A program made the translations under genes and the position numbers. A stretch of 64,000 nt of DNA, taken from Actinomyces oris. GTDB taxonomy: Bacteria > Actinomycetota > Actinomycetes > Actinomycetales > Actinomycetaceae. Within the stretch, counting starts at the first letter, position 1. Each line of letters opens with the position of its first letter. Location: positions 1,240,001-1,304,000 of the forward strand of contig NZ_CP014232.1 in NCBI RefSeq assembly GCF_001553935.1. The letters are read 5' to 3'. The notes under the pieces were generated by a model that had not been told where the DNA came from, ran no database searches, and saw nothing but the letters and a program-made list of their open reading frames with translations. Positions 26,339-43,394 of this stretch are shown one piece after another.

Positions 26339-27043
26339 TCACACCAGATTGTGCTGCAGGGCGTACACGGCTGCTCCCACCCGGTCTTGGACTCCGAGCT
26401 TGGCGATAATGGCGGATACGTGAGTCTTGACCGTGGCCTCACTGACTCTCAATCGAGTGGCAATCTGCTTGTTGGTCTTGGCGTCCACGACAAGTGTCAG
26501 CACCTCCCGTTCTCGTTCTGAGAGGGTGACCCCGTGGGGGAGGGGGGAAGGGGGCTGCTGCGCGTGAGTCGGAACCGGGATGGACTCCGAGGGGCGGGAG
26601 GAGCCGCTTGCCCACAGTCTGGCCTGGTCGCTGATGATGGCCGATGATGTTGGTGACAGGACGAGATTGCCTGCGACCGCCTGGTGGATGGCGCCGGCCA
26701 AGGATGAGGCACCATCCTCCTTGGCAACGAATCCGCGTACCCCCAGTGCCATGGCTTCGTCAACGATGGAGTCGGCTGTAAAAGTCGTCAGGATGAGGAT
26801 CGCAATATCTGGTTTCTCCTCGAGAAGTGCTTGAGCCAGTGCGAGGCCATCCATCTTGGGCATCTGGACGTCCACGAGAACGGCTTGGACCCTGCTCTCG
26901 ACCTCCGAGGAGTGGAAGAGGTCGAGCGCCTCCTGGCCGTCCTTGGCTGTCCAGGCAACGACGATGTCGTCGTTCCTGGAGAGAAGATCCGTCAGCGTCT
27001 GACGAACCAGGGCATCGTCGTCCGCAATACCAATACTGATCAT
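26339..27043 (-). CDS. NarL/LuxR-family response regulator
   Basis: A 234-residue two-component response regulator. Receiver domain: acidic pocket ADDD (7-10), phosphoacceptor Asp58 in VLVDVQMPKMDG, Thr in LILTTFT, and Lys in VAKED. After a Pro/Ser linker comes a LuxR-type helix-turn-helix: LSEREREVLTLVVDAKTNKQ followed by IATRLRVSEATVKTHVSAI. Its ATG overlaps the stop of the kinase gene (ATGA), so the pair is coupled. It faces away from the methyltransferase, exporter and lasso genes but is the nearest regulator to them, which makes it a candidate controller. Confidence 0.92.
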   Translation of the reverse strand: MISIGIADDDALVRQTLTDLLSRNDDIVVAWTAKDGQEALDLFHSSEVESRVQAVLVDVQMPKMDGLALAQALLEEKPDIAILILTTFTADSIVDEAMALGVRGFVAKEDGASSLAGAIHQAVAGNLVLSPTSSAIISDQARLWASGSSRPSESIPVPTHAQQPPSPLPHGVTLSEREREVLTLVVDAKTNKQIATRLRVSEATVKTHVSAIIAKLGVQDRVGAAVYALQHNLV

Positions 27044-28230
27044 GACTCATCCTCGATGACTCGGGTGGGTGGCTGTGAGAGAGGGATGGAGGCGGATGTC
27101 AGCCAGGTGCCGTTGTCCATCAACGTATCCAGTGAGCCGCCGACGGTTGAGAGCCTCTCCTTCATACCAAGAATCCCCATCCCGGAGGAAGGAAACCTGT
27201 GATGCGAAGAGAGGACCCCATTGGTCACAACCAGGCGAGCCTTGTGAGCGTCTTGACTCAGGGTGATGGTGACCGGTTGATCGTGATCCGCATGTCTCAG
27301 AACATTGGAGCACATCTCCCGAAGCACCCGGGAGAGGATGGCAGCTTGAAGGCGAGTGTAGTGCCCGTCTCCCCTGCACTGGTAGGTCACGGAGTAGCCG
27401 GACGCGGAGAGGTCGTCGGCGACGGCGCGCACGGACTCCTCAAGATCCAGTACGACGGTTCCCAATCCGGCGGCGGTGTGTTCATGATCGGTGTGCTCGT
27501 CCTCGTTGCTTCTTAGGGCTCGCAGCACGAGGCGCAGCTCGTGAAGTGCGTCGGCCGCGGTGGACTCGATCGCGGCGAACTCCTGCTGAGCGGCGACGGG
27601 ATAGGAGGGATCTGCAGCCGCGCGTTGCGCCCGCAAGGCGGTCTGGGACATCGAGTAGGCGACGAGATCATGCATTTCCCGTGCAATTTCGGAGCGGATG
27701 GACTTCAGCTTCTCTGTGGCGGTTGATACTTCTTCTCTTAACGATGCCTCCGTGTGACGCAGTATAGATCCGGGAAGAAGGGTGCAGGCTGCGAGGAACA
27801 AATAAGAAACTGCATCCGGAAGGGGGCCTGTTGGTATGATGAGCGCCGCTGGGACGACTAACGCGAGAGTGAGTGCCACCCGCAGGGGAAGAAATGTCGC
27901 CAAGAAGAAAAAAAAGGCGGCGTTGGTGATGGTCATGTCGCTGGCGGGAACGTGTGGAACCTGAAGAAGCACGATCCATAGGGTCAGATAACCGAGAGAA
28001 CCCCATATGGGGAATATGGGGATCAGGAATAGAGCAACAACTGTTAAGAGAAGAAAAAAGAGGCGCTCTGGGGTAGGTGATGTGACAAGGGTGAGCATGA
28101 GTGTCATGTTGATGACACCAACCATAGTGCCAATGGCGGCATATCGCCGCTGAGTTCGAGTGGCGCTCCGTAGATGCGTGCCCGGCCACCAGTGGGAGTG
28201 GGTTCTGATGGCATCTAGGAAGTTACTCAC
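27040..28230 (-). CDS. NarL-partner sensor histidine kinase (HisKA_3)
   Basis: A 396-residue membrane kinase: about six N-terminal membrane segments (residues 34-160) with almost no extracellular loop, the HisKA_3 phosphorylation site His187 in IAREMHDLVAYSMSQ, a degenerate dimer helix, then an HATPase with EMCSNVLRHADHDQ (N box) and SSGMGILGMKERL (G box). Such intramembrane-sensing kinases often detect cell-envelope stress or peptides. The GTG at 28230 lies 6 nt after TATTAA in a strong promoter. The codons and base composition are visibly more AT-rich than those of the neighbours. Confidence 0.9.
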   Translation of the reverse strand: MSNFLDAIRTHSHWWPGTHLRSATRTQRRYAAIGTMVGVINMTLMLTLVTSPTPERLFFLLLTVVALFLIPIFPIWGSLGYLTLWIVLLQVPHVPASDMTITNAAFFFFLATFLPLRVALTLALVVPAALIIPTGPLPDAVSYLFLAACTLLPGSILRHTEASLREEVSTATEKLKSIRSEIAREMHDLVAYSMSQTALRAQRAAADPSYPVAAQQEFAAIESTAADALHELRLVLRALRSNEDEHTDHEHTAAGLGTVVLDLEESVRAVADDLSASGYSVTYQCRGDGHYTRLQAAILSRVLREMCSNVLRHADHDQPVTITLSQDAHKARLVVTNGVLSSHHRFPSSGMGILGMKERLSTVGGSLDTLMDNGTWLTSASIPLSQPPTRVIEDES

Positions 28231-28236
28231 CACACT

Positions 28237-28266
28237 TTAATACCGGATAAATTATTGGTATGTCAA
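28237..28266 (-). promoter_or_regulatory. Sigma-70 type promoter of the sensor kinase operon
   Basis: On the minus strand TTGACA (28261-28266) is followed by 18 nt and TATTAA (28237-28242), then 6 nt to the GTG start. Near-consensus -35 and -10 boxes are rare in the rest of the window. The start-codon distance implies a leaderless mRNA. The rest of the gap, 28267-28498, shows nothing else. Confidence 0.7.
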
Positions 28267-28498
28267 GTGCTATTTATGAACGTGAATTCGGGGGGATACC
28301 GGTTGTCGTGCGTTGCTGGTGGTAGGCGCTGGGGTGGGGTGGGTGAGGGTGGTACCTGACCAGCCTGCGGTGCCACTCTCCAAACCCCGCAAGCTGTCAG
28401 CACTCCCGACGAGGAACTGGGCTGCCGGTGGTCAGACAAGATCGGTTGCCTCACCCACTATGAAGGCGTGGGGTCAGGGGTGCTCGCGCCCGGGTGTG

Positions 28499-29254
28499 TC
28501 ACCGTCGATTGACGGCGCCGAGGGTGACGCTGATGTGGTGGGGCAGGACCGGGTCTGGGGTGGATCGTTGGGTGGCCAGGAAGAGGCCGGCTCCCTTGAG
28601 GTCGTTGACGAGGTCCTCGGGCGCGACGAGGTGGTGCTCGGAGACGTGCTCCTGGTCGCGGCAGCGCAGGATGGTGCGTCGCCGGCGACCCACCTGGTCG
28701 ATCTCCTCGGTGAGGTACGTATCTGGCTGGAGCTGGATGGTGCTGGTTTCAGCCGCCTCTGGGAGTACGTGATCGATGGAGGTGATGAGGGTTCCGCCGA
28801 TCGCCATGTGGGCGGCCATGCATCGTATGGCCGCTCGTCGCTGCTCAGGATTCAACAGACTGATGGATGCCATGGGGAGGCAGACCGCCTTGAACAACTC
28901 CTTGATGTCGAAGGAGACCATGTCCGCCTGCCGGAGCTTGATCCGGTCTGCAGCTCCCGACTGGATGGCCCGCCGTTCTTTCAGTCGATCGGCGAGGAGG
29001 TTGAGCACGTCGATGCTGATGTCTGTGGCGAGCACGTGGTGTCCCGCGGCTGCGATGGGCACAGTGGTGCGTCCTGAGCCGCACGCGAGCTCGAGGACTC
29101 GCAAACCGGCCAGTGCCGGATCGGGCAGGGTGTCGAGAAAGCTGAGGATCGAGGTGATCTCGGTGTTGTCCCGGCGTGCGAGCTCCCAGCGTCGGTGAGC
29201 GTCGTCGTCGGCGTAAAGGCTGGGCGTATGGTTCGCTGCTCGTTCGTGAAGCAC
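28499..29254 (-). CDS. Class I SAM-dependent methyltransferase
   Basis: A 251-residue Rossmann-fold methyltransferase. Motif I is VLELACGSGRTTVPIAAAGH, then the acidic ribose-binding ATDISIDVLN, motif II/III region RLKERR...KLRQADMVSFD, and the methyltransferase-11/25 pattern FKAVCLPMASISLLNPEQRR. A GGAGG site precedes the GTG start by 9 nt. Nothing in the sequence shows its substrate. Its place beside an exporter and a lasso-peptide cluster allows a role in tailoring or self-protection, but a stand-alone metabolic role is equally possible. Confidence 0.85.
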   Translation of the reverse strand: MLHERAANHTPSLYADDDAHRRWELARRDNTEITSILSFLDTLPDPALAGLRVLELACGSGRTTVPIAAAGHHVLATDISIDVLNLLADRLKERRAIQSGAADRIKLRQADMVSFDIKELFKAVCLPMASISLLNPEQRRAAIRCMAAHMAIGGTLITSIDHVLPEAAETSTIQLQPDTYLTEEIDQVGRRRRTILRCRDQEHVSEHHLVAPEDLVNDLKGAGLFLATQRSTPDPVLPHHISVTLGAVNRR

Positions 29255-29260
29255 GGGCTA

Positions 29261-29335
29261 TCACCTCCGGAACTCTGTGGTGGTCATCAGTGGCTCCTTC
29301 CCGTTGGAGGAGCGGAGTTCTTTCGATCTCACCAT
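29261..29335 (-). CDS. Possible leader ORF before the methyltransferase
   Basis: A 24-codon frame, MVRSKELRSSNGKEPLMTTT ending EFRR, ends 6 nt before the methyltransferase start; an internal ATG (29287) has a better ribosome site, GGAAGGAG, giving only MTTTEFRR. Its stop overlaps the methyltransferase ribosome site. It could be a translational-coupling leader; no similarity was recognised. The rest of 29255-29711 has no supported gene; TAAGGT near 29627 may be a -10 for the exporter genes. Confidence 0.25.
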   Translation of the reverse strand: MVRSKELRSSNGKEPLMTTTEFRR

Positions 29336-29711
29336 TCAACGATGGTGAGCTCTCTTGGGCATCGGTCGATCGGATGGGTCGACCGGCGGACGCGCCGAGG
29401 GGGCTGTGGGGGAACCCTGGTCGGGTAGTACGCGAGTCCGATCCGTTCATCGCAACAGATCGAGCATGCTGTGGGGCCTCGAGGTCTTGAGGCCGCCTCG
29501 ATAGATGATTCGTCGCCTCGCCCTTTGAGGTGTTCTCGAAGGCCAGGAACTCTCATGCCGACGGGTGGGGGTTTTCTCCGTCCATCGGGTACCCCACATG
29601 GGCGATCCGCGCCGTTCCTGGCCCTGCCTAAGGTTTACGGGACAAACACGGAGCAGAAGAGGGCTGCCTTCGCCCGCACCTCCTCTTCTTCACGCGAGAA
29701 AGGAGCGCCTC

Positions 29712-30665
29712 ATGATCGAGGCACGTGGATTAACGAAGCGCTACGGCGACAAGGTTGCTGTAGACAACATCTCTTTCACCGTCGAGCCGGGCACCGTTAC
29801 CGGCTTCCTGGGCCCCAACGGCGCAGGCAAGTCCACCACCATGCGCATGATCATGGGCCTGGACAAGCCGACGACCGGCACCGTGACCGTGGCCGGCAAG
29901 AAGTACAAGGACCTCAACGCCCCGCTGTGCACCGTCGGTGCCCTGCTGGACGCCAAGGGCCTGCACGGATCGCAAACGGCCCGCACCCACCTGACGCAGC
30001 TGGCTGTGTCCAACGGCATCCCCGTCAACCGGGTTGACAAGGTCCTGGACATGACCGGACTCACCTCGGTGGCCAAGAAGCGGGTCAAGGGGTTCAGCCT
30101 CGGGATGGGGCAGCGTCTGGGCATCGCCGCCGCCCTCCTGGGAGACCCTGACATCCTCATCTTCGATGAGCCCGTCAACGGTCTGGACCCCGAAGGCGTC
30201 ATCTGGGTTCGCCAGATCTGCCGCTCCCTGGCGGCCGAGGGACGCATCGTCTTCATCTCCTCCCACCTCATGGGCGAGATGGCCCAAACAGCCGATCGCC
30301 TCATCGTCATCGGCCGCGGCCGCATCCTCAGCACCGGTCCCGTGACCGACGTCATCGCCTCGGCCACCTGCGACACCGTGCGCGTCGCCTCCCCCCAGGC
30401 AACCGACCTCGCCGACCTCCTGGCCTCCCAGAGGATCGCCGTCGAGACCCCGGAGCGTGGCGTGCTCACCCTGACCGCCGCCCCTGCCGCTCGCATCGGC
30501 GAGCTCGCCGCCGCCCACGGCATCGTCCTGCATGAGCTGACCACCATCAAGGCCAGCCTCGAGGACGCCTACCTCGAGCTCACCGGCGGCAACACCGAGT
30601 ACAACACCAGCATCCCCAGGGGCCAGGCTGACCAGCCGGTCGCCCAGCAGCACGCGTTGCGTTGA
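29712..30665 (+). CDS. ABC transporter ATPase
   Basis: A 317-residue ATPase of the DrrA/CcmA-like exporter class: Walker A GPNGAGKSTTM, Q-loop region at TVGALLDAKGLHG (no Gln), signature FSLGMGQRLGIAAALLGDPD, Walker B ILIFDEP, D-loop NGLDPEG and H-loop FISSHL. The C-terminal domain (about residues 215-317) is the extra region of drug and lantibiotic exporters. ATG preceded by AAAGGAG. It forms an operon with the permease 31 nt downstream and probably exports or excludes a hydrophobic molecule; direct link to the lasso peptide is unproven. Confidence 0.9.
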   Translation: MIEARGLTKRYGDKVAVDNISFTVEPGTVTGFLGPNGAGKSTTMRMIMGLDKPTTGTVTVAGKKYKDLNAPLCTVGALLDAKGLHGSQTARTHLTQLAVSNGIPVNRVDKVLDMTGLTSVAKKRVKGFSLGMGQRLGIAAALLGDPDILIFDEPVNGLDPEGVIWVRQICRSLAAEGRIVFISSHLMGEMAQTADRLIVIGRGRILSTGPVTDVIASATCDTVRVASPQATDLADLLASQRIAVETPERGVLTLTAAPAARIGELAAAHGIVLHELTTIKASLEDAYLELTGGNTEYNTSIPRGQADQPVAQQHALR

Positions 30666-30696
30666 GCCTGACCCCGCAGACCTCAAGGAGAACCCC

Positions 30697-31533
30697 ATGA
30701 CCGCGATCACCGCATCCGGCACGAAGCTACGTGCCCCCCGCATCAACGGCCACCAAACCTTCGGCCGCGCTCTGCGCTCCGAGTGGATCAAGATCCGCTC
30801 TCTGCGCTCCACCTGGGTTACCTCTGCCGTCGCCATGGGCGTCATGGTCCTCTTCGGGGCGGCCACCGCCATCGGCTACCACGACATCCCGGAGCAGGTG
30901 GATCAGGCCAAGTACCAGATCACGTCCGCCGCGCCCTTCGGCTATATCATCGTCGCCGTCCTCGGCGCACTCCAAGTCACTGGGGAGTACGCCTCCGGTC
31001 AGATCCGCTCCAGCCTCACTGCGACCCCCCACCGGGGTCGACTCCTCATGGCCAAGGCCGCGGTCGTCGCAGTCTTCGCCTTCTTCCTGGGACTACTGTC
31101 AACCATGGCGACGTGGGCCGTCACCGTCCCCTTCCTCAAGGATGACGCCGGGAGTATCACCGACAGCGAGTACCTGGGTTTCTTCTGGGGCTCCGGACTC
31201 GCCTTCGCCGCCATCGCGCTGATGGGTCTTGCCTACGGCTTCCTCCTGCGCTCCACGGCCGGCGCCATCACGACCGTCGTCGTGGTGCTCTTCGTCATCA
31301 TGGTGCCGTTGCAGATGATGGCCTCGCAGTGGGAGTGGGCCAAAGAGCTCGCGGGTCTGCTCCCGACCTCCGCCGACGCCGCCATCACGGATCCCTTCGC
31401 CGTGGCGAACACCTGGGGCGTTGAGGATACGGCGACCTTCCTCTCCCAGGCGCAGACGGCTCTGATATTCCTCGCCTGGACTGTGCTTCCTCTGCCCATC
31501 GCGGCGGCAATCTTCCTCACGCGAGACGCCTAA
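30697..31533 (+). CDS. ABC-2 type permease partner
   Basis: A 278-residue permease with six membrane segments. The opening GRALRSEWIKIRSLRSTWVT is the typical cytoplasmic start of ABC-2 permeases (E-W-x-K-x-R-S-x-R-S-T), followed by VTGEYASGQIRSSLTATPHR, the conserved loop of the family. Ribosome site AAGGAG (spacing 7). Partner of the preceding ATPase. Confidence 0.88.
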   Translation: MTAITASGTKLRAPRINGHQTFGRALRSEWIKIRSLRSTWVTSAVAMGVMVLFGAATAIGYHDIPEQVDQAKYQITSAAPFGYIIVAVLGALQVTGEYASGQIRSSLTATPHRGRLLMAKAAVVAVFAFFLGLLSTMATWAVTVPFLKDDAGSITDSEYLGFFWGSGLAFAAIALMGLAYGFLLRSTAGAITTVVVVLFVIMVPLQMMASQWEWAKELAGLLPTSADAAITDPFAVANTWGVEDTATFLSQAQTALIFLAWTVLPLPIAAAIFLTRDA

Positions 31534-31576
31534 GGGGCGCACGCCTCGGGAGGATACGCCTCAGGGGCGCATAGGC

Positions 31577-31612
31577 CGGGGCGCCGACATCCTGCGGGGT
31601 GTTGGCGCCCCG
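31577..31612 (+). terminator. Hairpin terminator after the exporter pair
   Basis: Stem CGGGGCGCCGACA / TGTTGGCGCCCCG (13 bp with one G-T pair), loop of 10 nt, 44 nt after the permease stop. It separates the exporter operon from the lasso operon. Between 31534 and 31933 the only other items are the palindromic repeat and the lasso promoter. Confidence 0.65.
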
Positions 31613-31659
31613 TCGCGTCTGCAGCCATACGCAGTGCTCGTTCGGGTGCTGGAGGCGCA

Positions 31660-31726
31660 ACACTTCGACCGAATCTTCATAAACGACCCGGAGTCGCGTT
31701 GTTTATGAAGATTCGGTCGAAGTGTG
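31660..31726. repeat. Dispersed palindromic repeat, family C copy 3
   Basis: The most symmetrical copy: CACTTCGACCGAATCTTCAT, AAACGAC, a core CCGGAGTCGCG, then TTGTTT and ATGAAGATTCGGTCGAAGTG. Copies 1 and 2 are at 8886 and 16777. It lies between the exporter terminator and the lasso operon promoter. Confidence 0.85.
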
Positions 31727-31876
31727 TGGTGGGTGGATGGTGGTGTCGAGCTGCGGGAGATAGCCGAATCCGTCATTTCCCAAGTGGTGCTCCCGCTCGT
31801 TGGACGAATGGGTGACCAGATATCAATCGACCGGATAACCCGAATGGCGGATTACATGGCTGTCCGGAACCGGCAG

Positions 31877-31882
31877 TATTAA
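31877..31882 (+). promoter_or_regulatory. Probable -10 box of the lasso operon
   Basis: TATTAA, the same hexamer used by the sensor-kinase promoter, 51 nt before the cyclase ATG. No good -35 is present (best is TTACAT at 31852-31857, spacing 19), which fits an activator-dependent promoter. CCGGAT and its complement TCCGG lie just upstream (31830-31870). Confidence 0.4.
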
Positions 31883-31933
31883 GTCATCGACAACGACACA
31901 CCAACGAGATCAGTGAGGAAGGAGGCGAGCGCC

Positions 31934-33841
31934 ATGACGATCACCGCCCCGGAGATGACGGAATCGGATCACGCGGATAACCCGACGATCACCGTCCGGT
32001 CCGTCGATCAACAAGATAATTCCATCATCCTGCCTCAGGCATTCGCCATCGCAGTACCGGACACGGTCGAGGCTGACAACGTCATCAGCATCGCCGCCCC
32101 GCAGGCGACGATGATCGCCAGGCACGCCTCGGGCAGGCCTTGGCTCATGGTGCGCATGCCGCAGGCGTACGTCACGGCCTCAACAGCTCCCGGCACCAGT
32201 ATCGTGGTAGTAGGAACGTGCTCCGCCTCAGTCGAGGATCTCAACAGAATCGCGCGACGCGGTGCCTCGCTCTCGGAAACAGCCGCCGAGGTCATGCGGT
32301 TCGACGGGAGCTTCACCGTCTACGCGCTGCGGGATGCGACGATCCTCGCCTGCGGGCCGGCGATGCAGACGCATCGCGTCTTCCACGCCCGCATCTTCGG
32401 CACCACCATCGTCTCGGATCGCGCCGATACTCTCGCGGCCCTGGGGAGGCTCCCGCTGGACACGGCAGCCGTGACTCGCTCCCTCCTGGGCAGCCAGCCC
32501 AACTTCGACGACGCCCAGCAGCCCATGTGGAAGGGCATCACCCCGGTGTACGGCGGTCACTGTCTCACCGTGGACGCCAGCGCCTCGACTTCGACCCATG
32601 CCTGGTGGCGGCGGCCGAGTCCGCGGTTGAGCCGCTCCGAGGGCGCGGCATTACTTCGAGAAAGGCTCCAGGCGGCAGTAGCCGTGCGCTCCCAGCAGCA
32701 TCGCGAGCTGGCATGCGATCTTTCTGGAGGACTCGACTCCACGCCGGTGTGCTACTACGCCTCCACCGCACCTCAGGGGGTCACGGCTCTCACGTTTTAC
32801 AGCGATGATCCTGGCGGCCGTGAGGACCTCCGCTGGGCTGAGATCGCCGCTCAGGCGATGCCTCGAGTCAGGCATGAAGCACTCTGGCTGGGCGATGCGC
32901 CGTCGTTCTACGAGGGAATCGGCGAGATGGACATTCCCGTCGATGAGCCCACCCAGGTGCCACTCACCGCCCCCCGTATCCTCTACGCGCTCGACCGCGA
33001 TCGCGACCAGGGCGTCACCATGCACCTTCATGGCGCCGGCGGTGACCATCTCTTCCGCGGTGTCCCTGCATGGGACCACAGCATTGCCCGGCGCCACCCC
33101 ATTCTCGGCTGGAACCGGGCCCGGGCGGAGGCCGCCGCGATGAAGCAGAGCAGCCTCACGGCGCTCCGGCGCCTCATCGACCGGCGATCGTACTCGCGCT
33201 GGTTGAAGGACATGGCGTACGAATCGGTGCGTCCCTCTGCGGAGACCTTCTCCCTCAGAGCAAGCGACTGGTACATACCGCCCCGCATCCCTGCCTGGAT
33301 CGCCCAGGAGGCGCGAGAGGAACTCATCGCCTCCATGGTCGCCTCGGCCGAGCATGCCAAGCCGCTCTCCCCTGAACGTGGTGAGCATTTCGATCTGGCG
33401 AGCATCATCGACGCCTCGAGAGTGACTCGAGGAATGTCTCAGGTCGGCCTCCACCAAGGTATTGGGTATGAGTCGCCACTCATGGATGACCATGTCGTCG
33501 AGGCAGTTCTCAGTGTCGCCTACACAGATCGGGACAGCCCCATCGAGTGGAAGCCCCTCATGAAAGCAGCGATGCGCGGGATTCTCCCCGACGAATACCT
33601 GCTCCGAACCACCAAGGTGGGGGGGTCGCCACAGGCCGTTCGTGGATACGCACAGAACTTCTCGACAGTGAAGGATCTGCTGGACGAGTCCAGCCTCATG
33701 GATCTTGGGATTATTGACCGTCACGCCCTGGAGGAGTCGATTCGACCGTCGGAAACCAGTATGCCACCCACTCTGATTTCCCAGCTCATCAACACCGCTC
33801 TTTTCCTCAGGAACTCGCCCTCGGTGACGACTGCTTCCTGA
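31934..33841 (+). CDS. Lasso peptide cyclase (asparagine-synthetase-like, protein C)
   Basis: A 635-residue homologue of asparagine synthetase B. The PP-loop that adenylates the side-chain carboxylate is LACDLSGGLDSTP (SGGLDS at 264-269); a later GAGGDHLFRG is the second ATP-site motif typical of lasso cyclases. The N-terminal glutaminase-like domain lacks the catalytic Cys2, as expected for enzymes that use an internal amine and not ammonia. In lasso clusters this protein activates the Asp/Glu side chain at core position 7-9 and joins it to the core N-terminus. Start ATG at 31934 has an AAGGAGG site with 8-nt spacing. It heads an apparent operon to 39559. Length (about 600) is normal for actinobacterial cyclases. 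Confidence 0.92.
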   Translation: MTITAPEMTESDHADNPTITVRSVDQQDNSIILPQAFAIAVPDTVEADNVISIAAPQATMIARHASGRPWLMVRMPQAYVTASTAPGTSIVVVGTCSASVEDLNRIARRGASLSETAAEVMRFDGSFTVYALRDATILACGPAMQTHRVFHARIFGTTIVSDRADTLAALGRLPLDTAAVTRSLLGSQPNFDDAQQPMWKGITPVYGGHCLTVDASASTSTHAWWRRPSPRLSRSEGAALLRERLQAAVAVRSQQHRELACDLSGGLDSTPVCYYASTAPQGVTALTFYSDDPGGREDLRWAEIAAQAMPRVRHEALWLGDAPSFYEGIGEMDIPVDEPTQVPLTAPRILYALDRDRDQGVTMHLHGAGGDHLFRGVPAWDHSIARRHPILGWNRARAEAAAMKQSSLTALRRLIDRRSYSRWLKDMAYESVRPSAETFSLRASDWYIPPRIPAWIAQEAREELIASMVASAEHAKPLSPERGEHFDLASIIDASRVTRGMSQVGLHQGIGYESPLMDDHVVEAVLSVAYTDRDSPIEWKPLMKAAMRGILPDEYLLRTTKVGGSPQAVRGYAQNFSTVKDLLDESSLMDLGIIDRHALEESIRPSETSMPPTLISQLINTALFLRNSPSVTTAS

Positions 33842-33872
33842 TCCCCCACGTCAACTGACCAAAGGAAGACAC

Positions 33873-34121
33873 ATGGCAAACAAGAAAGCCGCCCCTCTGC
33901 GGGTGCAGACCGATTACGGCGAGGTGGCGCTGGCCCCGAAGAGTGGGAAGTACTGGCACCTTAATTCCACAGCGGCACAGATACTCGATGAGCTCCAGAC
34001 CGGGGGCGACGCCAGGAGCGCTACGGATGCTCTTGTGGCCACATACGGGATCAGTGCCGAGCAGGCCTCACGTGATGTCGCTTCGACCATCGCATCACTT
34101 CACCGTGAGGGTATCGTCTGA
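33873..34121 (+). CDS. Lasso peptide recognition protein B1 (PqqD-like RRE)
   Basis: An 82-residue stand-alone RiPP recognition element. The PqqD fold is seen in LRVQTDYGEVALAPKSGKYW, then HLNSTAAQILDELQTGG (the typical L-N-x-T-A-x-x-I/L-x-x-L), and a C-terminal helix with QASRDVASTIASLHREGIV. B1 proteins bind the conserved leader positions Tyr, Pro and Leu/Ile and deliver the precursor to B2. Ribosome site AAAGGAAG. In this cluster B1 is separate from B2, as is usual for actinobacteria. Its stop codon overlaps an ATG (TGATG) of a short frame. Confidence 0.9.
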   Translation: MANKKAAPLRVQTDYGEVALAPKSGKYWHLNSTAAQILDELQTGGDARSATDALVATYGISAEQASRDVASTIASLHREGIV

Positions 34122-34225
34122 TGATCCTCCTCCCAGTCCACCCGGTGAGTCACCGGGTCAGGGATGGCCCCGCCACCCCGCCTCCGTTCAAGGCCCGCTC
34201 CGAACTGCGGGGCCAGCGGCCCTGA
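34121..34225 (+). CDS. Short TGATG-coupled ORF after B1, possible remnant
   Basis: A 34-codon frame starting MILLPVHPVSHRVRDGPATP and ending SELRGQRP. Its ATG shares one base with the B1 stop, the arrangement used for translational coupling, and it occupies the place where B2 usually follows B1. It contains a hairpin (ACCCGGT/ACCGGGT, 34140-34158) and has no recognised domain. It may be a decayed start of an older B2 copy or simply non-coding sequence. Confidence 0.3.
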   Translation: MILLPVHPVSHRVRDGPATPPPFKARSELRGQRP

Positions 34226-34299
34226 ACCGTCCCAGCTGACCACGACGTCACTCCACTGATCGGATGACAGAAGAAAGAACTCGAAAGGAGGTGAGCACT

Positions 34300-34428
34300 G
34301 TGCGCAACTACATTGCACCCGAGATTCACGAGCTCGGTGGATTCGCCAAGGAGACCGGCTTCGGCATCGGCGGCGCCCAGGAGGGCTGGTGGATCATCGC
34401 AGACATCTACGGTCCGAACCCGTTCTGA
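34300..34428 (+). CDS. Lasso peptide precursor A1
   Basis: A 42-residue precursor missed by length-limited gene calling. The GTG at 34300 has a perfect AAAGGAGG site 8 nt upstream; an in-frame ATG at 34264 would add 12 residues without a ribosome site. The leader has the canonical recognition pattern YIAPEIHELGGFAKETG: Tyr4, Pro7, Ile9, Gly13 and Thr19, with spacing identical to the YxxPxLxxxGxxxxxT rule. With Thr at -2 the core begins at Phe21: ring FGIGGAQE (Phe1 to Glu8), tail GWWIIADIYGPNPF. If cleavage is directly after Thr, the ring would be Gly1 to Glu9. Two adjacent Trp and bulky Ile, Tyr and Phe residues in the tail could act as steric plugs. Confidence 0.88.
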   Translation: MRNYIAPEIHELGGFAKETGFGIGGAQEGWWIIADIYGPNPF

Positions 34429-34485
34429 TCACATTCAGAAACAATCACAGCACAGATCACCAACACAAGAAAGGAGGTCATGACA

Positions 34486-34608
34486 ATGACCGCATACGCA
34501 ACTCCGACCGTCCAGGAGCTGGGAGACTTCCAGACCCGTACAGGTGAGTGGGTCGGTCCATACACCGAGTACGTCCTCCCGTTCTGGGACTTCTCCTACG
34601 AGGGCTGA
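34486..34608 (+). CDS. Lasso peptide precursor A2
   Basis: A 40-residue precursor 57 nt after A1. The ATG at 34486 has an AAAGGAGG site with the same 8-nt spacing as A1; the ATG at 34480 is too close. Leader YATPTVQELGDFQTRTG keeps the recognition residues: Tyr4, Pro7, Val9, Gly13, Thr19. By the Thr -2 rule the core is ring EWVGPYTE (Glu1 to Glu8), tail YVLPFWDFSYEG; if cleavage follows Thr, Gly1 to Glu9. Glu as residue 1 would be unusual, which favours the second register or an unusual product. The core shares only the acceptor Glu position with A1. Confidence 0.88.
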   Translation: MTAYATPTVQELGDFQTRTGEWVGPYTEYVLPFWDFSYEG

Positions 34609-34633
34609 TCCCCCGTAACCCCGGGAAGGAAGT

Positions 34634-34658
34634 GGGGGCGGGTCCTGCACCCGCCCCC
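34634..34658 (+). terminator. Intercistronic hairpin after the precursors
   Basis: GGGGGCGGGT / ACCCGCCCCC, loop CCTGC, 25 nt past the A2 stop and 69 nt before the next gene. No T-tract. A hairpin placed just after precursor genes commonly lowers expression of the distal genes or protects the precursor mRNA; that function is inferred. Confidence 0.55.
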
Positions 34659-34727
34659 GCCCCTTCTCAGATGCAGCCGCGCGCTGACAACAACCATCGA
34701 ACGCACCCGCGCCAAAGGAGGAGAACC

Positions 34728-35633
34728 ATGCCGCAGATGACTCAAGCCCCTGCAGTCCAGGCCTCACAGCTCACCATGTCGTACGACGACAAGACCGTGC
34801 TGGCCGGAACCTCCTTCACCATCCCGCGCGGCTCCGTCCTGGCGCTCCTGGGACCCAATGGCGCAGGCAAGAGCACGACCATCGATATCCTGTGCGGGCT
34901 CAAGCGCCGCTCCTCGGGATATGTGCGGGTCCTGGGGATCGATCCCGCCCACGCCGACGAGGCGTGGCGAGCGCGAGTGGGCGTGGTACGTCAGTCCTGG
35001 CGTGATCACGAGCGCTGGCGCGTCGGCGACCTCCTGCATCACCTCAGCCAGTACTACGGCGCTTATTCCTCCTCTGAGGCGGGATGGGACCCCGATGAGC
35101 TCCTGCGCGTCGTTGGTCTGTCCTCGGTCGCTGCGAAGCGCATCCGCACGCTCTCCGGTGGCCAGAGACGGCGGCTCGACGTCGCCATCGGGCTTGTCGG
35201 CAACCCCGACATCCTCTTCCTCGACGAGCCGACCACCGGTTTCGACACCGAGGCGCGCAACGAGTTCCACGCACTCATCCATGCTCTGGTCGCGCGGAAG
35301 ACCCTGACCATTGTCCTGACCACTCACGACCTCAGGGAGGCCGAGGAGCTCGCCAGTCACGTCATCGTCCTGGCCGAGGGGACGGTGAGGTTCCAGGGCA
35401 CGGTGGAGGAGTTCGGACAGCGGGTGCAGGTCAAGGACCGCATCAGCTATACGGACCGGGGTGAGTTCCACGTGCTGGAAACACCTCCCGATGCCACCGT
35501 CCCCACTCTCAAGACGCTCGTCAACACCGCAGGCGAGTCCCTCGAGAATCTCGAGGTCCGACGCGCCACGCTGGAGCAGCTCTACCTGCGCATCACCAAC
35601 GAGGCCGCACACGCCCGGAGGGCCGCATCATGA
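34728..35633 (+). CDS. Lasso cluster ABC transporter ATPase 1
   Basis: A 301-residue nucleotide-binding protein: Walker A GPNGAGKST (42-50), Q-loop VVRQSW, signature LSGGQRRRLD (142-151), Walker B ILFLDEP (162-168), then TTHD for the H-loop. It is of the DrrA/NodI class that works with a separate ABC-2 permease, unlike the fused ABC transporter D of many proteobacterial lasso clusters. Ribosome site AAAGGAGG, ATG at 34728. The stop overlaps the next gene (ATGA). Likely exports one or both mature lasso peptides. Confidence 0.9.
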   Translation: MPQMTQAPAVQASQLTMSYDDKTVLAGTSFTIPRGSVLALLGPNGAGKSTTIDILCGLKRRSSGYVRVLGIDPAHADEAWRARVGVVRQSWRDHERWRVGDLLHHLSQYYGAYSSSEAGWDPDELLRVVGLSSVAAKRIRTLSGGQRRRLDVAIGLVGNPDILFLDEPTTGFDTEARNEFHALIHALVARKTLTIVLTTHDLREAEELASHVIVLAEGTVRFQGTVEEFGQRVQVKDRISYTDRGEFHVLETPPDATVPTLKTLVNTAGESLENLEVRRATLEQLYLRITNEAAHARRAAS

Positions 35634-36598
35634 TGGCGGCCGGAAGCCCCAGCGGAATCGTCGCCCTTGGATACCGGCGCAGCCTCATCGAGCTGAGGAA
35701 CAACCTCGGCTCTCTGCCAGGTCATCTCATGTTCCCAGTCATCGCGGTGGTCACGATCTCCATCGTCCGTCACAGCGACGCACTCGCCGGCCGGGGCGCC
35801 TCCTTCGGGAACTACGCCCTCATCGGCATCCTGCTCATCAACACGCTGCTGTCAGGCGTCATGGGTGCCGCCTCGACCGTCATGCAGGAGAGGATGGACG
35901 GCACCCTGCTCAGGTCGAGCTGTCTGCCCCACGGCACGACGGCGTACGCCATCAGCAAGGTCCTCAGCCACTTCCAGCTCGCCGTCACCGCATTCGCGGC
36001 GGCGCTCCCGCTCCTGTGGCTGGTCACGGGCCGCACGGCACTCTCCCCCGTGAGCACCGCGGCCCTCCTCGTCGTCGCTCCTGCCGGGCTCCTCTCACTG
36101 CTCCCGCTGGCCGTCGTCGTCGGCGCGACGCTCAGGAGTCCGCGCCAGCTCAGCCTTGCCTCCATCAGCGTCATGCTCATCGGAGCAGCCTCGGGGGCGT
36201 TCCATCCGATCGCAGGATCGGGAGGGCTCACGCAGGCGGGTGCGATGACGCTGCCGACCTTCTGGGTGAGTGCGAGCCTGCGCAACGCCCTCCTGCCCGA
36301 GTCCTCCCACTCGGGTGATCCCAGCGACCTCACGGTGCTGCTCGGTGGCCTCATCGTTCCCCTCATCTGGCTGGTCATCGGGATCTCGCTGGCTCGCAGA
36401 GCCCTGCGCCGCGCCTCCAGGTGCTCCGGCGGTCGACGAGGCTCGGCCCGGCACAAGGCGTGCGAGGGCGGCCAGCGCGCACGCAGAACGAGCCCACAGA
36501 ACCCACGAGCCTCCGGTGCTCGGGCGCGCCATCAAGCCGCCACGAGGCGCAGACGCCGATCCACGACGCAGACAAGACAGAGGAGCATCGCCCGATGA
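35630..36598 (+). CDS. ABC-2 type permease, partner of ATPase 1, with long basic tail
   Basis: A 322-residue protein: about six membrane segments in residues 28-262 (for example LMFPVIAVVTISIV, YALIGILLINTLLSGVMGAAS, LLVVAPAGLLSLLPLAVVVG, LTVLLGGLIVPLIWLVIGISLA), with MQERMDGTLLRSSCLPHG as the family loop. From residue 265 on there are about 58 very Arg/Ser/Thr-rich residues, unlike any permease domain. The tail ends exactly on the overlap with ATPase 2 (ATGA). The extension may be readthrough of a lost stop or a frameshifted spacer; there is no sign that it folds. Confidence 0.82.
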   Translation: MMAAGSPSGIVALGYRRSLIELRNNLGSLPGHLMFPVIAVVTISIVRHSDALAGRGASFGNYALIGILLINTLLSGVMGAASTVMQERMDGTLLRSSCLPHGTTAYAISKVLSHFQLAVTAFAAALPLLWLVTGRTALSPVSTAALLVVAPAGLLSLLPLAVVVGATLRSPRQLSLASISVMLIGAASGAFHPIAGSGGLTQAGAMTLPTFWVSASLRNALLPESSHSGDPSDLTVLLGGLIVPLIWLVIGISLARRALRRASRCSGGRRGSARHKACEGGQRARRTSPQNPRASGARARHQAATRRRRRSTTQTRQRSIAR

Positions 36599-37512
36599 GC
36601 GACATCGTCACCACCCATCAGCTCAGCAAGCGTTACGGCGACCGACAGGTCGTTCACGACGTGGACCTGCGGATTCCCGAGGGCGTCGTGTACGGGTTCC
36701 TGGGACCCAACGGCGCTGGCAAATCGACCACGATGAAGATGCTCCTGTCCCTCATCCGCCCGAGCAGCGGGAGCATCCGGATCCTCGGTGAGCCGATGAC
36801 GCGCGAGAACCGTCACAGGCTCCTGGGCCGGATCGGCTCGCTCATCGAGTCCCCTCCGGGGTACGGCCACCTCACCGGCGCGGAGAACATGCGCATCGTG
36901 CAGCACCTCCTCGGTCTGAATGACGACGACGTGCGTGACGCCGTGCGGACCGTCCATCTCGAGAGGCACATCGACAAGAAGGTGCGCGCCTACTCCCTCG
37001 GCATGAAGCAGCGCCTCGGCATTGCCATGGCGCTGGTCCGCCGGCCCCGCCTGCTCATCCTCGACGAACCGACCAACGGCCTCGACCCCGCGGGGATCGA
37101 GGAGATACGAGACCTTCTCCAGCGGCTCGCCGAGCGCGGGACAACAGTCATGGTCTCCTCGCACCTGCTCGGTGAGATCGACAAGACGGCCACCGTGCTG
37201 GGCGTCCTGGCCCAGGGACGACTGGTCTTCCAGGGGAACCGCTCGGAGATGCTCGACGTCACCGCGCCGGACATCCTGATCGACTGCGCGGCCCCATCGC
37301 GCGCCTGCGAATCCCTCTCCTCCCTCTCCCCGATCCTCGAGCAGAGGTCAGACCGCGCTCTCATCAGGCTGCGTGGGATCACACGGGAGACAACTGCGCA
37401 GGCCATCTCCAGCCTGGTCGGCCGAGGCATCGACATCTACAGCGCCGTCCCGGAGGAGCAGACGCTGGAAAGCGCGTTCATGCGGATGACGCAAGGGGGT
37501 GGCATCCGGTGA
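36595..37512 (+). CDS. LanF-like ABC ATPase (self-immunity type)
   Basis: A 305-residue ATPase of the BcrA/LanF class: Walker A GPNGAGKST (37-45), the clade markers ESPPGYGHLTGAENMRI, signature YSLGMKQRLGIA (133-144) and Walker B LLILDEPTNGLDPAGIEE. In lantibiotic clusters LanFEG pumps remove the peptide from the producer membrane. Such a set is unusual inside a lasso cluster. ATGA overlap with the permease before and GTGA overlap with the permease after imply coupled translation. It closely resembles the ATPase at 45628. Confidence 0.9.
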   Translation: MSDIVTTHQLSKRYGDRQVVHDVDLRIPEGVVYGFLGPNGAGKSTTMKMLLSLIRPSSGSIRILGEPMTRENRHRLLGRIGSLIESPPGYGHLTGAENMRIVQHLLGLNDDDVRDAVRTVHLERHIDKKVRAYSLGMKQRLGIAMALVRRPRLLILDEPTNGLDPAGIEEIRDLLQRLAERGTTVMVSSHLLGEIDKTATVLGVLAQGRLVFQGNRSEMLDVTAPDILIDCAAPSRACESLSSLSPILEQRSDRALIRLRGITRETTAQAISSLVGRGIDIYSAVPEEQTLESAFMRMTQGGGIR

Positions 37513-38297
37513 CAGCGGCAACCCGGACCTCGATCAGACCCCGCCCTTTACGCGTCCTGCGTGCTGAGTACTCCAAGATGAGGAATCTGAGAATCCTCCC
37601 CCTTCTGCTCTTCCTGCTCCTCGGTGCGGTGGGCATCGCAGTGCTCTTTGCCCTCGGCGCCGGTGTTTCCGTCGATCTCAAGGCTCCTGACGGGGATGGC
37701 TGGAAGGTGCTGCTCGGTGGCCTTCACGCCGGGGTGTGCCTCCTGGCTCCGCTCCTCATCGCGGTCATCGCCAGCAGGGTGACGGAGATCGAGCGCGCGG
37801 GCAATGGATGGCTTCTCTTTGCGGCGTCGGGAACAACACCTGGGCAGCTGTGCCGTGCGAAGTTCCTCGCCCTCGGTGCGCCACTGGCAGCCGTCTGCGT
37901 GCTGTGGGGACTGTGCGTGCCGATGTGGGGGGCACTGCTTGGCGTCCCCGCCCCAGTGCCCACCGGCAGGATCGTCGCGTACACCGCCTCGGTGTGCGTC
38001 ATCAGTCTTGTCATTCTCGCGCTCCAGCTCCTCATCTCCTTGGCATCGGACAACCAGCTGCTGGCAGTAGGAGCCGGAATGCTGGGGGTGCTCCTGAGCA
38101 TGATCGGCGCTATGGCGCCCACCTGGGCGCAATACCTCACCCCCTGGACCTATTACTCCCTCGTTGTGCCCATGACGTTCGCGGGATCCGATCCCGTGTA
38201 CCTGGACGCGCCCTTCCCCGGGGCGCTGGTACTCGCCATCGCGGGCGCCGTCGCCTTCACCATCATCACCACTCGTCTCGACCGCAAGGAGGTGTAG
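37509..38297 (+). CDS. LanE/G-like ABC permease 1
   Basis: A 262-residue protein with six membrane segments. It starts with LRVLRAEYSKMRNLRILPLLLFLL and carries the conserved loop ASRVTEIERAGNGWLLFAASGTTPGQLCRAKFLALG, whose E-R/H-x-G-N/S-x-W is typical of the lantibiotic-immunity permeases (ABC-2_4). GTG start overlaps ATPase 2. Closest in pattern to the permease at 44768 (DIEHTGSGWNLAAASGLTPG). Confidence 0.86.
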   Translation: MTAATRTSIRPRPLRVLRAEYSKMRNLRILPLLLFLLLGAVGIAVLFALGAGVSVDLKAPDGDGWKVLLGGLHAGVCLLAPLLIAVIASRVTEIERAGNGWLLFAASGTTPGQLCRAKFLALGAPLAAVCVLWGLCVPMWGALLGVPAPVPTGRIVAYTASVCVISLVILALQLLISLASDNQLLAVGAGMLGVLLSMIGAMAPTWAQYLTPWTYYSLVVPMTFAGSDPVYLDAPFPGALVLAIAGAVAFTIITTRLDRKEV

Positions 38298-38300
38298 GAC

Positions 38301-39047
38301 ATGGGAGTCTTCATTGCGGAGCTGATCAAGATCCGGCGCTCAGCGGCGTGGATTCTCGCCGCACTCGTCCCTTCCGTCACTGCCGTGGCCAGCGCCATGG
38401 GAGCCTGGACCTCTGGCGGCTTCGAGGATGGCTGGAACACCCTGTGGATCCGATCGATCGGCCTCTACGGGATGCTGATGCTCGGCGTCGGACTGTCCGT
38501 CCTGGCCTCCCTCGTCTGGCGCGCCGAGCACACCGGGAACAACTGGAACGCCATGACCGCCCAACCGGTGGCCGCCTGGAGGCTGGCCTCCGCCAAGGTT
38601 CTCGCGCTCGCCCTCCTCGCGACCTTCATGCAGGCAGTCCTCCTCCTGACCGTGCTCTTCCTGGGAAAGGTGGTGTTCCACCTGCCCGCTTGGCTCCCGG
38701 CTCGCTACTACGCCGTCAGCGTCCTCGTGGTCGTGGCCAGCGTGCCCGTCTGCGCGGCACAGTCCGCTCTGTCAGCGAGGTCCCGCTCGTTCGTTCTTCC
38801 CGTCGTGATCGGGTTCGTGCTCACGTGCGTCGGTGCCGTTCTTCTCGCCATCAAGGTCAGGGCGGCCCTGATCTACGCCTACTGCCTCCTGGCTCATACC
38901 ACTCAGCTCGGATCAGGCTCTGGGGCGGACGCGTCGGCGCTCACGATCCAGTCGGCCACCCTCACCGTCGTTCTGTCCGTCGCGCTGACCGCGCTCTGCG
39001 TTCTTGCCACAGCGCGCTACTTCAATCGGACGGACACGCACGCCTGA
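38301..39047 (+). CDS. LanE/G-like ABC permease 2
   Basis: A 248-residue permease, six membrane segments, starting MGVFIAELIKIRRSAAW. The loop WRAEHTGNNWNAMTAQPVAAW matches the E-H-x-G/N-x-W-N motif of its neighbour and of the permease at 43960 (WRMEHRGTSWNAMRTSPHSP). An AAGGAGG site lies in the end of the preceding gene, 3 nt separate the two frames. Forms the heteromeric pump with ATPase 2 and permease 1. Confidence 0.86.
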   Translation: MGVFIAELIKIRRSAAWILAALVPSVTAVASAMGAWTSGGFEDGWNTLWIRSIGLYGMLMLGVGLSVLASLVWRAEHTGNNWNAMTAQPVAAWRLASAKVLALALLATFMQAVLLLTVLFLGKVVFHLPAWLPARYYAVSVLVVVASVPVCAAQSALSARSRSFVLPVVIGFVLTCVGAVLLAIKVRAALIYAYCLLAHTTQLGSGSGADASALTIQSATLTVVLSVALTALCVLATARYFNRTDTHA

Positions 39048-39133
39048 GTCCCTCCCACCCGTCACTGACCGCCCATCGCCACCACCAGGGCATCGGCAGC
39101 AAAGCCGGCTCGCATTCAGAAAGGTGTCCTCTC

Positions 39134-39559
39134 ATGAGCCAGATGCTCCCCACCACCCGCCACTCGATCAGCCTGGTCCAGCGCACGAACATCGCCGTGC
39201 TGGTCGGCCTGTCCCGCCTCCTGCGCCATCTCAAGCCCCACCGTCTCCAGCGCCTCATGTCCTTCGTCGTGCGGGGCGCGCAGCCCGCCGACTACAGCAT
39301 CGCCCGCGACGCCAGGGATGACATCCTCTCCGCCAGCGCCGTGTGCCGCGGGGACAGGGCGTGCCTCATCAGGTCGGTGGCCGCGATGCTCCTGTGCAGG
39401 CAGCGCGGCTACGCGCCGACGTGGTGCGTCGGCGTCGTCGCCACGCCCCCCTTCGCCGCCCACGCCTGGATCGAGGCCGACGATCGCATCGTCGATGAGC
39501 CTATCGACGCGTCGTACCTGCGGACTTTCTACCGCGTGGGCGCCTCCGCCCGGGCGTGA
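39134..39559 (+). CDS. Lasso leader peptidase B2 (transglutaminase-like)
   Basis: A 141-residue cysteine protease of the lasso B2 (transglutaminase-like superfamily) type. Catalytic residues are in place: Cys77 in RACLIRSVAAMLLCRQRGY, His110 in FAAHAWIEADD and the following Asp region DDRIVDEPI. The N-terminal helix LSRLLRHLKPHRLQRLM is typical. It removes the leader after the Thr motif so that the cyclase can act. Ribosome site AAAGGTG. It is the last gene of the operon, 86 nt after the immunity permease and 5 kb away from B1; in most actinobacterial clusters B2 follows B1 directly. Convergent with the next gene. Confidence 0.88.
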   Translation: MSQMLPTTRHSISLVQRTNIAVLVGLSRLLRHLKPHRLQRLMSFVVRGAQPADYSIARDARDDILSASAVCRGDRACLIRSVAAMLLCRQRGYAPTWCVGVVATPPFAAHAWIEADDRIVDEPIDASYLRTFYRVGASARA

Positions 39560-39611
39560 CCGGCCCGCACCGACGGCACCTTCATGACGGGGCCCTGTCC
39601 GTGCACGCGCG

Positions 39612-42581: not shown

Positions 42582-42664
42582 GACGCCGATTCTAGGGGGA
42601 GAGCCTGGGCGGACCCTCCTACGCCGGAAGGAGCCGCGCGGCGGCGTTGGTCTGTTCAAAGTAG

Positions 42665-42715
42665 TTTGCAACGCAAACCAAAGGGCGCTATCCTGGAGCT
42701 GGTTTGAAACGCAAA
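42665..42715 (+). promoter_or_regulatory. Promoter with two operator-like repeats
   Basis: TTTGCAACGCAAA (42665-42677) and TTTGAAACGCAAA (42703-42715) are palindromic half-site pairs (TTTGc..gCAAA), 38 bp apart, on both sides of TATCCT (42689-42694), a probable -10. This is the pattern expected for repression of the downstream pair, whose second gene is a winged-helix regulator. Confidence 0.65.
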
Positions 42716-42739
42716 CCCATGTTGACGAGGAGGTTCACC

Positions 42740-43393: not shown

Positions 43394-43394
43394 C

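What the first reader, a model, noticed from the sequence alone, without database searches (positions are those of the whole stretch)
31934..39559. A complete but unusually organised lasso-peptide gene cluster
Cyclase with SGGLDS loop and no Cys2, PqqD-like B1, transglutaminase-like B2 with Cys/His/Asp, and two precursors with the Y-x-x-P-x-I/V-x-x-x-G-x5-T leader are seen directly. The order C-B1-A1-A2-ATPase-permease-LanF-LanE-LanG-B2 differs from the usual A-C-B1-B2(-D) of actinobacteria, and immunity-type pumps sit inside. I do not know a described lasso peptide with these cores.
Basis: partly seen in the sequence, partly recalled or inferred. Interest (0 to 1): 0.88.

Follow-up and report, generated by a model that had tools for sequence, protein, structure and literature searches.

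The report
Paired lasso-peptide gene cluster in Actinomyces
A complete bacterial gene cluster for two different knotted (lasso) peptides of types that are usually found together in related clusters of other actinobacteria, mostly with a self-protection pump beside them, which hints that the two peptides may work as a pair.

Summary
In detail: an intact lasso-peptide cluster lies at 31934-39559 (cyclase, PqqD-like B1, two precursors, an ABC pair, a LanFEG-like pump, B2). In one cyclase clade of 14 loci (Actinomyces, Rhodococcus, Nocardia, Brevibacterium, Saccharopolyspora, Mobilicoccus, Streptomyces and others) 11 carry both; of the rest one has divergent forms, one is cut off by its contig end, one lacks alpha. 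A close LanF relative lies beside 10 of 80 fetched cyclases, all in this clade. Cyclase-first order is the clade's own; only B2, 5 kb from B1, is unusual. The pair is in print for Rhodococcus as a prediction (PMC11433410); my ten paper searches found no wider account. Most likely it makes two 8-residue-ring lasso peptides, secreted as bacteriocins with LanFEG self-protection. Whether they act jointly is open: their cores diverge in parallel, but few lineages carry that signal. A. israelii's relative has a broken cyclase, and the window's island was lost in G001, leaving a fusion scar; relatives carry other RiPP clusters at that site.

The parts
31934..33841 (+). lasso cyclase (C), asparagine-synthetase-like, no Cys2
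   Evidence: PF00733 123 bits; NF033561 226 bits, below its cut-off of 300; SGGLDS invariant in 41 sequences
33873..34121 (+). B1, PqqD-like leader-recognition protein
   Evidence: PF05402 56.5 bits; NF033530 69.0 against cut-off 70
34300..34428 (+). A1 = alpha precursor; core FGIGGAQEGWWIIADIYGPNPF, predicted ring F1-E8; GTG start behind AAAGGAGGT
   Evidence: PF19397 21.9 against 22.6; homologues
34486..34608 (+). A2 = beta precursor; core EWVGPYTEYVLPFWDFSYEG, predicted ring E1-E8; ATG start behind AAAGGAGGT
   Evidence: NF033521 lasso_leader_L3 19.4 against 19; homologues
34623..34668 (+). strong RNA hairpin between A2 and the ATPase, possible attenuator or mRNA stabiliser (no T-run)
   Evidence: fold of 34600-34700 -46 kcal/mol, z -2.5; not listed as a terminator
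34728..35633 (+). ABC ATPase (ABC1) of the probable exporter
   Evidence: PF00005; 46-52% identical relatives in 9 of 12 other clade loci compared
35630..36457 (+). ABC-2 permease partner (Perm1); its exact end was not tested
   Evidence: PF12698 36.3 bits; relatives 32-38% identical in the same 9 loci
36595..37512 (+). LanF-like ATPase of a self-protection pump
   Evidence: TIGR03740 252 bits, cut-off 309.75; groups with LanFs of other alpha/beta loci, support 82/87
37509..38297 (+). LanE-like permease
   Evidence: PF12730 30.9 bits; TIGR03732 20.6 bits, far below cut-off
38301..39047 (+). LanG-like permease
   Evidence: PF12730 61 bits; TIGR03732 34.3 bits, below cut-off
39134..39559 (+). 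B2, leader-cleaving transglutaminase-like cysteine protease; displaced from B1
   Evidence: NF033537 96.9 bits, PF13471 88.8 bits; alignment
29712..31533 (+). upstream ABC ATPase and permease; same island, membership in the lasso system unproven
   Evidence: only generic ABC similarity (about 28-32%) to other loci
28499..29254 (-). daptide-type methyltransferase, probably a leftover of another RiPP cluster
   Evidence: NF041820 225.6 against 175; no relative listed in the 23 loci
26339..28233 (-). response regulator and histidine kinase; lost together with the lasso genes in G001
   Evidence: regulator only 30-35% identical to those in other clade loci

Best explanation
An intact lasso-peptide cluster of a conserved two-precursor family. 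B1 binds the leaders (Y-x-x-P ... G-x-F ... T-G); B2 cuts behind T-G; the cyclase activates Glu8 and joins it to the new N-terminus, giving two 8-residue-ring lasso peptides: alpha (F1-E8) and beta (E1-E8). The ABC1/Perm1 pair probably exports them and the LanFEG-like pump clears them from the producer's membrane. They are most likely secreted together as a bacteriocin against Gram-positive neighbours, acting at the cell envelope. Shown: genes, reading frames, family assignments, the acceptor Glu8, frequent pairing, LanFEG linkage. Inferred: ring, threading, export, target, activity.
For: All enzymes are intact. A cut after T-G puts Glu at core position 8 in both cores here, in 36 of 39 beta-type and 34 of 36 alpha-type proteins listed; Glu is residue 1 in 39 of 39 beta types. 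Of the 13 other loci of the cyclase clade 10 hold both types at 70 bits or more; the types were first found by a leader-only pattern. LanF relatives at 57% identity or more lie in 10 of 80 cyclase loci, all in this clade, at most 35% in the other 70. The clade has support 100*. Window LanF groups with alpha/beta-linked LanFs of other genera rather than with resident Actinomyces LanFs (82/87). Cores are more alike (mean 63% and 67%) than the cyclases (47%) over 10 loci.
Against: No product, transcript or activity has been seen. LanF-like genes occur in 49 of 49 Actinomyces genomes, many at 52-67% identity, so identity alone proves no dedicated immunity. A. israelii's linked LanF groups with those residents (95/94*), and the window LanF sits on a long branch. 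A. israelii's cyclase frame is broken by stops, so at least one paired cluster looks inactive as sequenced. L009 has a beta-like core and a third type but no alpha; L017 has divergent forms and no close LanF; L013 shows none either (only 5.7 kb upstream held). If L009, L015 and L017 count as lacking the pair, the label needs 4 changes on the tree. ABC1/Perm1 is not found in L008, L009 and L010. B2 lies 5 kb from B1. Cyclase and LanF score below the cut-offs of their best models. The HMMs were built from ten pairs, the window's and nine of the ten counted loci.
Confidence: 0.72

Rival explanations
1. Two independent bacteriocins share one set of enzymes: alpha and beta hit different targets and are kept together only to widen the spectrum.
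For: Both cores are distinct and separately conserved; copy numbers are not fixed (L012 2 alpha and 2 beta, L014 and L018 1 and 2, L030 at least 2 and 2); the co-variation fades without the divergent lineages.
Against: Co-occurrence over many genera; core-to-core correlation beyond cyclase, B2 and leaders over 10 loci (partial r 0.75, permutation p 0.0006).
Confidence: 0.4
2. One of the two is a signal or inducer, the other the antibiotic: one peptide is read by a linked histidine kinase and switches on the operon.
For: NarL-type regulators and kinases lie beside ABC1 and beside LanFEG in L012-like clade loci.
Against: The window's own regulator is only distantly related (30-35%) and its gene pair lies behind a daptide-type methyltransferase; no receptor was tested.
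Confidence: 0.15
3. The LanFEG-like genes are resident Actinomyces genes caught between lasso genes and have no role in the pathway.
For: A kinase-regulator-LanFEG module lies beside the same right-hand neighbour gene in G035 (L110), and LanF relatives lie at this site in G040 (L119) and G018 (L122); LanF relatives in 49 of 49 genomes.
Against: Window LanF groups with alpha/beta-linked LanFs of other genera (82/87), and a linked LanF is found in 9 of the 10 other loci with both types.
Confidence: 0.15
4. A decaying cluster that no longer makes product.
For: B2 is displaced; the island is deleted in G001 and reduced to a B2 stub in G020; A. israelii's cyclase is broken.
Against: Here every reading frame and catalytic residue is intact; a 97% identical cyclase cluster stands for 1049 member sequences.
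Confidence: 0.08

Closest known systems
Rhodococcus cluster family GCF_7679 (Mar Drugs 2024, PMC11433410; passages read)
   Same: two lasso precursors in each of 11 clusters, cores EFIGPNTEAILPFEDHSKE and YGIGGQAEGWNP, predicted macrolactams EFIGPNTE and YGIGGQAE: the same two types; [quoted passage not shown]
   Different: presented as specific to a Rhodococcus clade and as prediction only; the passages I saw do not mention LanFEG, other genera or joint action
Citrulassin-type actinobacterial lasso clusters (name recalled; L025-L029, L031-L087)
   Same: homologous cyclase, Y-x-x-P...T-G leader, acidic residue near position 8; B1 and B2 in most
   Different: precursor before the cyclase, and one precursor found in each of these 62 loci; the 12 of them put into the tree form a separate branch (100*)
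Two-component lantibiotics and their LanFEG pumps
   Same: two unlike cores from one cluster plus LanFEG-type self-protection (recalled); PMC9576775 (passages) describes actinobacterial two-precursor lanthipeptide clusters, one with synergy
   Different: here the peptides are lasso peptides; no lanthionine enzyme in the cluster; synergy untested
keywimysin-related RiPP / PF19397
   Same: NCBI gives this name to some alpha and beta homologues
   Different: A1 scores just below the Pfam cut-off (21.9 against 22.6), A2 has no hit

Membership tests
lasso-peptide biosynthetic cluster | asparagine-synthetase-like cyclase with SGGxDS loop and no Cys2 | tested here: met
lasso-peptide biosynthetic cluster | B1 leader-binding PqqD-like protein | tested here: met
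   PF05402 56.5 bits against 23.4; NF033530 just under its cut-off
lasso-peptide biosynthetic cluster | B2 cysteine protease with Cys-His-Asp | tested here: met
   NF033537 and PF13471 above cut-off; residues
lasso-peptide biosynthetic cluster | precursor with Thr at -2 and acidic acceptor at core position 7-9 | tested here: met
   both precursors; the rule itself is recalled
lasso-peptide biosynthetic cluster | threaded macrolactam product | not testable with these tools
   needs mass spectrometry and NMR
albusnodin/ikarugamycin-family cyclase (NF033561) | score at or above curated cut-off | tested here: not met
   226 against 300
LanFEG lantibiotic self-protection pump | LanF model TIGR03740 above cut-off | tested here: not met
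   252.4 against 309.75: called LanF-like only
LanFEG lantibiotic self-protection pump | ATPase followed by two ABC-2 permeases next to a bacteriocin cluster | tested here: met
   36595-39047
two-peptide bacteriocin | two unlike peptides always encoded together | tested here: inconclusive
   both types in the window and in 10 of 13 other clade loci; one more divergent (L017), one cut off by its contig end (L015), one without alpha (L009)
two-peptide bacteriocin | synergy of the two peptides | not testable with these tools
   needs purified peptides

The most novel reading that the evidence does not exclude
The alpha and beta peptides are one two-component lasso bacteriocin: two threaded peptides that must act together (for instance one docking on a cell-envelope target, the other completing the lesion), with a dedicated LanFEG pump. 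A two-component lasso antibiotic did not turn up in my ten paper searches.
Probability: 0.33. Interest if true: 0.82.

Novelty: new variant of a known kind. Interest (0 to 1): 0.55.

Why it matters
The 62 lasso clusters compared here that carry their precursor before the cyclase show one precursor each. A family spread over at least eight actinobacterial families in which two unlike cores are kept together, are better conserved than the cyclase that makes them, and mostly travel with a LanFEG-type pump makes a clean test of whether lasso peptides can work as a two-component antibiotic. The window's chromosomal site also exchanges whole RiPP clusters between relatives.

Tried and rejected
Finding more loci by single-sequence scan: the first genome-contig scan gave no relative; the alignment query worked (398 relatives, the best 80 kept). 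Plasmid records: 5 records, only about 32% identical cyclases. Class-wide genome sampling (394 genomes) gave only two distant hits at E 1e-90 besides the window.

Is LanF identity special? Rejected as an argument by itself: control one search found LanF relatives in 49 of 49 genomes. I use linkage and the tree instead.

Co-evolution of the two cores: r 0.82 over 10 loci, partial r 0.75, p 0.0006, but r 0.27, p 0.16 without window, L008 and L013. With 16 pairs r 0.62, p 0.002; the 12 of them with a cyclase give partial r 0.78, p 0.0002; without those three loci 13 pairs give 0.52, p 0.056; without L017 too 0.29, p 0.03 (0.07 after leaders); without Streptomonospora too 0.16, p 0.18. Five of the 16 pairs rest on equal longest-contig length (four) or on the Rhodococcus paper (one). 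A post-hoc link (alpha residue 1 aromatic versus beta residue 7 acidic, 15 of 16 pairs agree, Fisher p 0.0009) shrinks to two independent contrasts on the tree, so it proves nothing.

Rows dropped: L002, L003 and L088 are the same DNA as L008, L018 and L011; L014 (cyclase 97% like L012) was left out of the matrices; L013 and L015 (cut short) were left out of the LanF count of changes; L009 and L015 have no complete pair and are not in the matrices; L017 is in the 16- and 12-pair sets only. With L009, L015 and L017 left out the alpha/beta label needs one change on the tree, counted as lacking it needs four.

Daptide-type methyltransferase as lasso tailoring enzyme: rejected, no relative listed in the 23 loci; a daptide cluster sits at this site in a relative. 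The first B2 family scan and the first tblastn with B2 and ABC1 were out of frame, by my error; repeated. L112 and L113 were fetched and not used.
Full report
What is there. On the + strand at 31934-39559 lies an intact lasso-peptide cluster: cyclase, B1, precursor A1, precursor A2, ABC ATPase and permease, LanF-, LanE- and LanG-like genes, B2. The genome is one 3.04-Mb contig. Its genus also holds genomes G013 and G018, whose contigs match Actinomyces israelii DSM 43320 (L008) and A. naeslundii NCTC 10301 (L018) in length and position. Of 49 genomes of the genus, the window's, G013 and G018 hold a cyclase of this kind (E at or below 1e-60); two more, and a second place in G013, have weak matches. 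Each precursor has its own AAAGGAGGT ribosome site; the starts are GTG 34300 and ATG 34486, giving 20-residue leaders. The lasso rule that Thr stands at -2 (recalled) puts the cut behind T-G, so that alpha is F1...E8 and beta is E1...E8. A strong hairpin without a T-run follows A2 (fold of 34600-34700 -46 kcal/mol, z -2.5).

The pair. A pattern for the leader alone, run on the 87 loci then held besides the window's own, found two core types beside related cyclases. HMMs built from ten pairs (the window's and nine others) then gave both types at 70 bits or more in L008, L010, L011, L012, L013, L014, L016, L018, L024 and L030; only L014 was not among the model's own sequences. With the window that is 11 of the 14 loci of one cyclase clade (support 100*). 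The other three: L017 (Nonomuraea) has divergent versions of both; L015 ends right behind alpha; L009 (Brevibacterium) has a beta-like core and a third type beside LanFEG on the other strand, but no alpha. Each of the 62 precursor-first loci (L025-L029, L031-L087) shows exactly one precursor by these HMMs, which could miss unlike ones. Tandem copies occur: L012 2 alpha and 2 beta, L030 repeated alpha-beta units, L014 and L018 1 alpha and 2 beta. L010 also has a third leader-bearing frame. In A. israelii the cyclase frame is broken by stops, so that cluster looks inactive as sequenced. L011's record is labelled Propionibacterium, but the same DNA (G172, L088) is filed in the window's family.

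Among 5.8 billion proteins the beta profile listed 45 and the alpha profile 34 proteins (P0133, P0160, P0163 and P0164 are in both lists). Of the beta-type clusters whose longest contig is 10 kb or more 10 of 22, and of the alpha-type ones 10 of 18, share a longest-contig length with a partner of the other type, including Kineococcus and Streptomonospora (the Streptomonospora alpha is a weak hit, E 0.079). The unmatched ones say nothing, as each cluster shows one contig length only. Residue 1 is Glu in 39 of 39 beta types; residue 8 is Glu in 36 of 39 beta types and 34 of 36 alpha types (in one search my cutter misplaced P0122, which one search shows correctly).

Conservation. Over ten loci the cores average 63% (alpha) and 67% (beta) identity, cyclases 47%, leaders 52% and 49%, B2 51%. 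A. naeslundii and Rhodococcus L012 share the alpha core exactly and beta at 95%, with cyclases 52% identical. The two core matrices correlate (r 0.82; 0.75 after cyclase, B2 and leaders; p 0.0006), but three divergent loci carry the signal, and it weakens in the same way with 16 pairs. I treat it as suggestive only.

The pump. LanF relatives at 57% identity or more lie in 10 of the 80 genome-contig loci, all inside this clade; the other 70 reach 35% at most (some loci are cut short by contig ends). Control: LanF relatives occur in all 49 Actinomyces genomes, many at 52-67% identity. The LanF tree puts the window's copy with those of nine of the other ten linked loci's kind (eight in its group at 82/87, L011 just outside), not with resident Actinomyces copies, although its branch is long; A. 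israelii's copy groups with the residents (95/94*). The exporter ABC1/Perm1 has relatives in 9 of the 12 other loci compared (L008, L009 and L010 lack it in the stretch held; L015 was not in that comparison). Kinase and regulator genes lie near it and near LanFEG in L012-like loci. The window's own regulator is only a distant relative.

Gene order. In all 13 other clade loci B2 follows B1 at once, and alpha and beta lie downstream (L009's third type is the exception, upstream on the other strand). Cyclase-first order is therefore normal here. The displaced B2 is the window's own oddity.

The island. Window 26448-39533 is missing in G001: its DNA matches 24018-26447 and then 39534-43815 with a few bases between. 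The joint holds the 3' end of the regulator fused to the 3' end of B2, so this is most simply a deletion of an island that was once there. G020 keeps B2 residues 106-141 (64% identical). G022 and G014 have no cluster between the same flanks. The same site holds a daptide cluster in G045 (NF041821 504 bits against 450; NF041820 and NF041823 above cut-off; the HExxH protease model just below). In G030 a class II lanthipeptide synthetase (TIGR03897 418 against 304) lies some 8 kb from the same left-hand neighbour. The daptide-type methyltransferase at 28499-29254 is probably such a leftover.

How it probably works. B1 presents the leaders, B2 cuts after T-G, and the cyclase joins Glu8 to residue 1 (established for the family, recalled; here inferred). 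Export and protection are inferred from ABC1/Perm1 and LanFEG. Since LanFEG pumps protect against peptides acting at the membrane (established for lantibiotics, recalled), an envelope target is the best guess. Joint action of alpha and beta is a hypothesis (0.33).

Known or new. The pair is in print for Rhodococcus as a prediction (PMC11433410, passages read). A 2026 review (PMC13352647, outline and term search) has no match for 'two precursor', 'multiple precursor' or 'Actinomyces'. My ten paper searches listed no paper that I could recognise as describing a two-component lasso peptide or this family outside Rhodococcus, and no other paper with the core strings sent; for most hits I saw the listing only. 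Papers in which I saw passages: PMC11433410, PMC13352647, PMC6284299, PMC8549736, PMC9576775, PMC12325987. The library lacks most subscription journals, so absence there is weak evidence.

Noticed in passing
window 31660-31725: Near-perfect 31-nt palindrome (fold -48 kcal/mol, z -11) found at 15 places in the genome, this one included, two more of them in the window (16778-16842, 8886-8947): a dispersed palindromic repeat.
   Followed up: partly
window 28499-29254: Daptide-type methyltransferase (NF041820 225.6 bits against 175) with no other daptide enzyme seen among the neighbours scanned, next to a kinase/regulator pair; 82% identical DNA in G030.
   Followed up: partly
window 26448-39533 and L110, L114-L121: One chromosomal site that holds lasso, daptide, lanthipeptide or LanF-type cargo, or nothing, in different Actinomyces genomes: a RiPP exchange hotspot.
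   Followed up: partly
window 43960-46866 (-), 46903-49306 (+): A second LanFEG-like pump with its own kinase and regulator and no precursor cluster noticed nearby; close relatives of its ATPase in G001, G014, G022, G040, G045.
   Followed up: partly
L005 1251, L006 3393: Other Actinomyces lasso-like precursors with core CLWWGDCRDFLGCG...PIC.: Cys1, Asp9 and four cysteines, like class I siamycins (comparison recalled).
   Followed up: no
P0192 and P0194: Alpha alleles from sequence collections without Glu8 (Ala in P0192, 23 member sequences; a short core in P0194), which could not form the usual ring. May be dead alleles or artefacts.
   Followed up: no
L009 7865 (-) and 12603: Brevibacterium cluster with beta-like EFPWAPEIETVLPIRDFSA and a third core GLPFLPYLEEALPFFDRDNP beside LanFEG, and no alpha: a possible partner swap.
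   Followed up: partly
L019-L023: Sister cyclase-first clusters (Streptomyces, Amycolatopsis, Actinomadura) with one to three precursors and unlike, aromatic-rich cores, no LanF relative above 32%.
   Followed up: no
L008 3066-4919; L030 19832-20718: A. israelii's cyclase frame is broken by stops, and the LanF match in Mobilicoccus falls into two overlapping pieces in different frames: either decay or sequencing errors.
   Followed up: no
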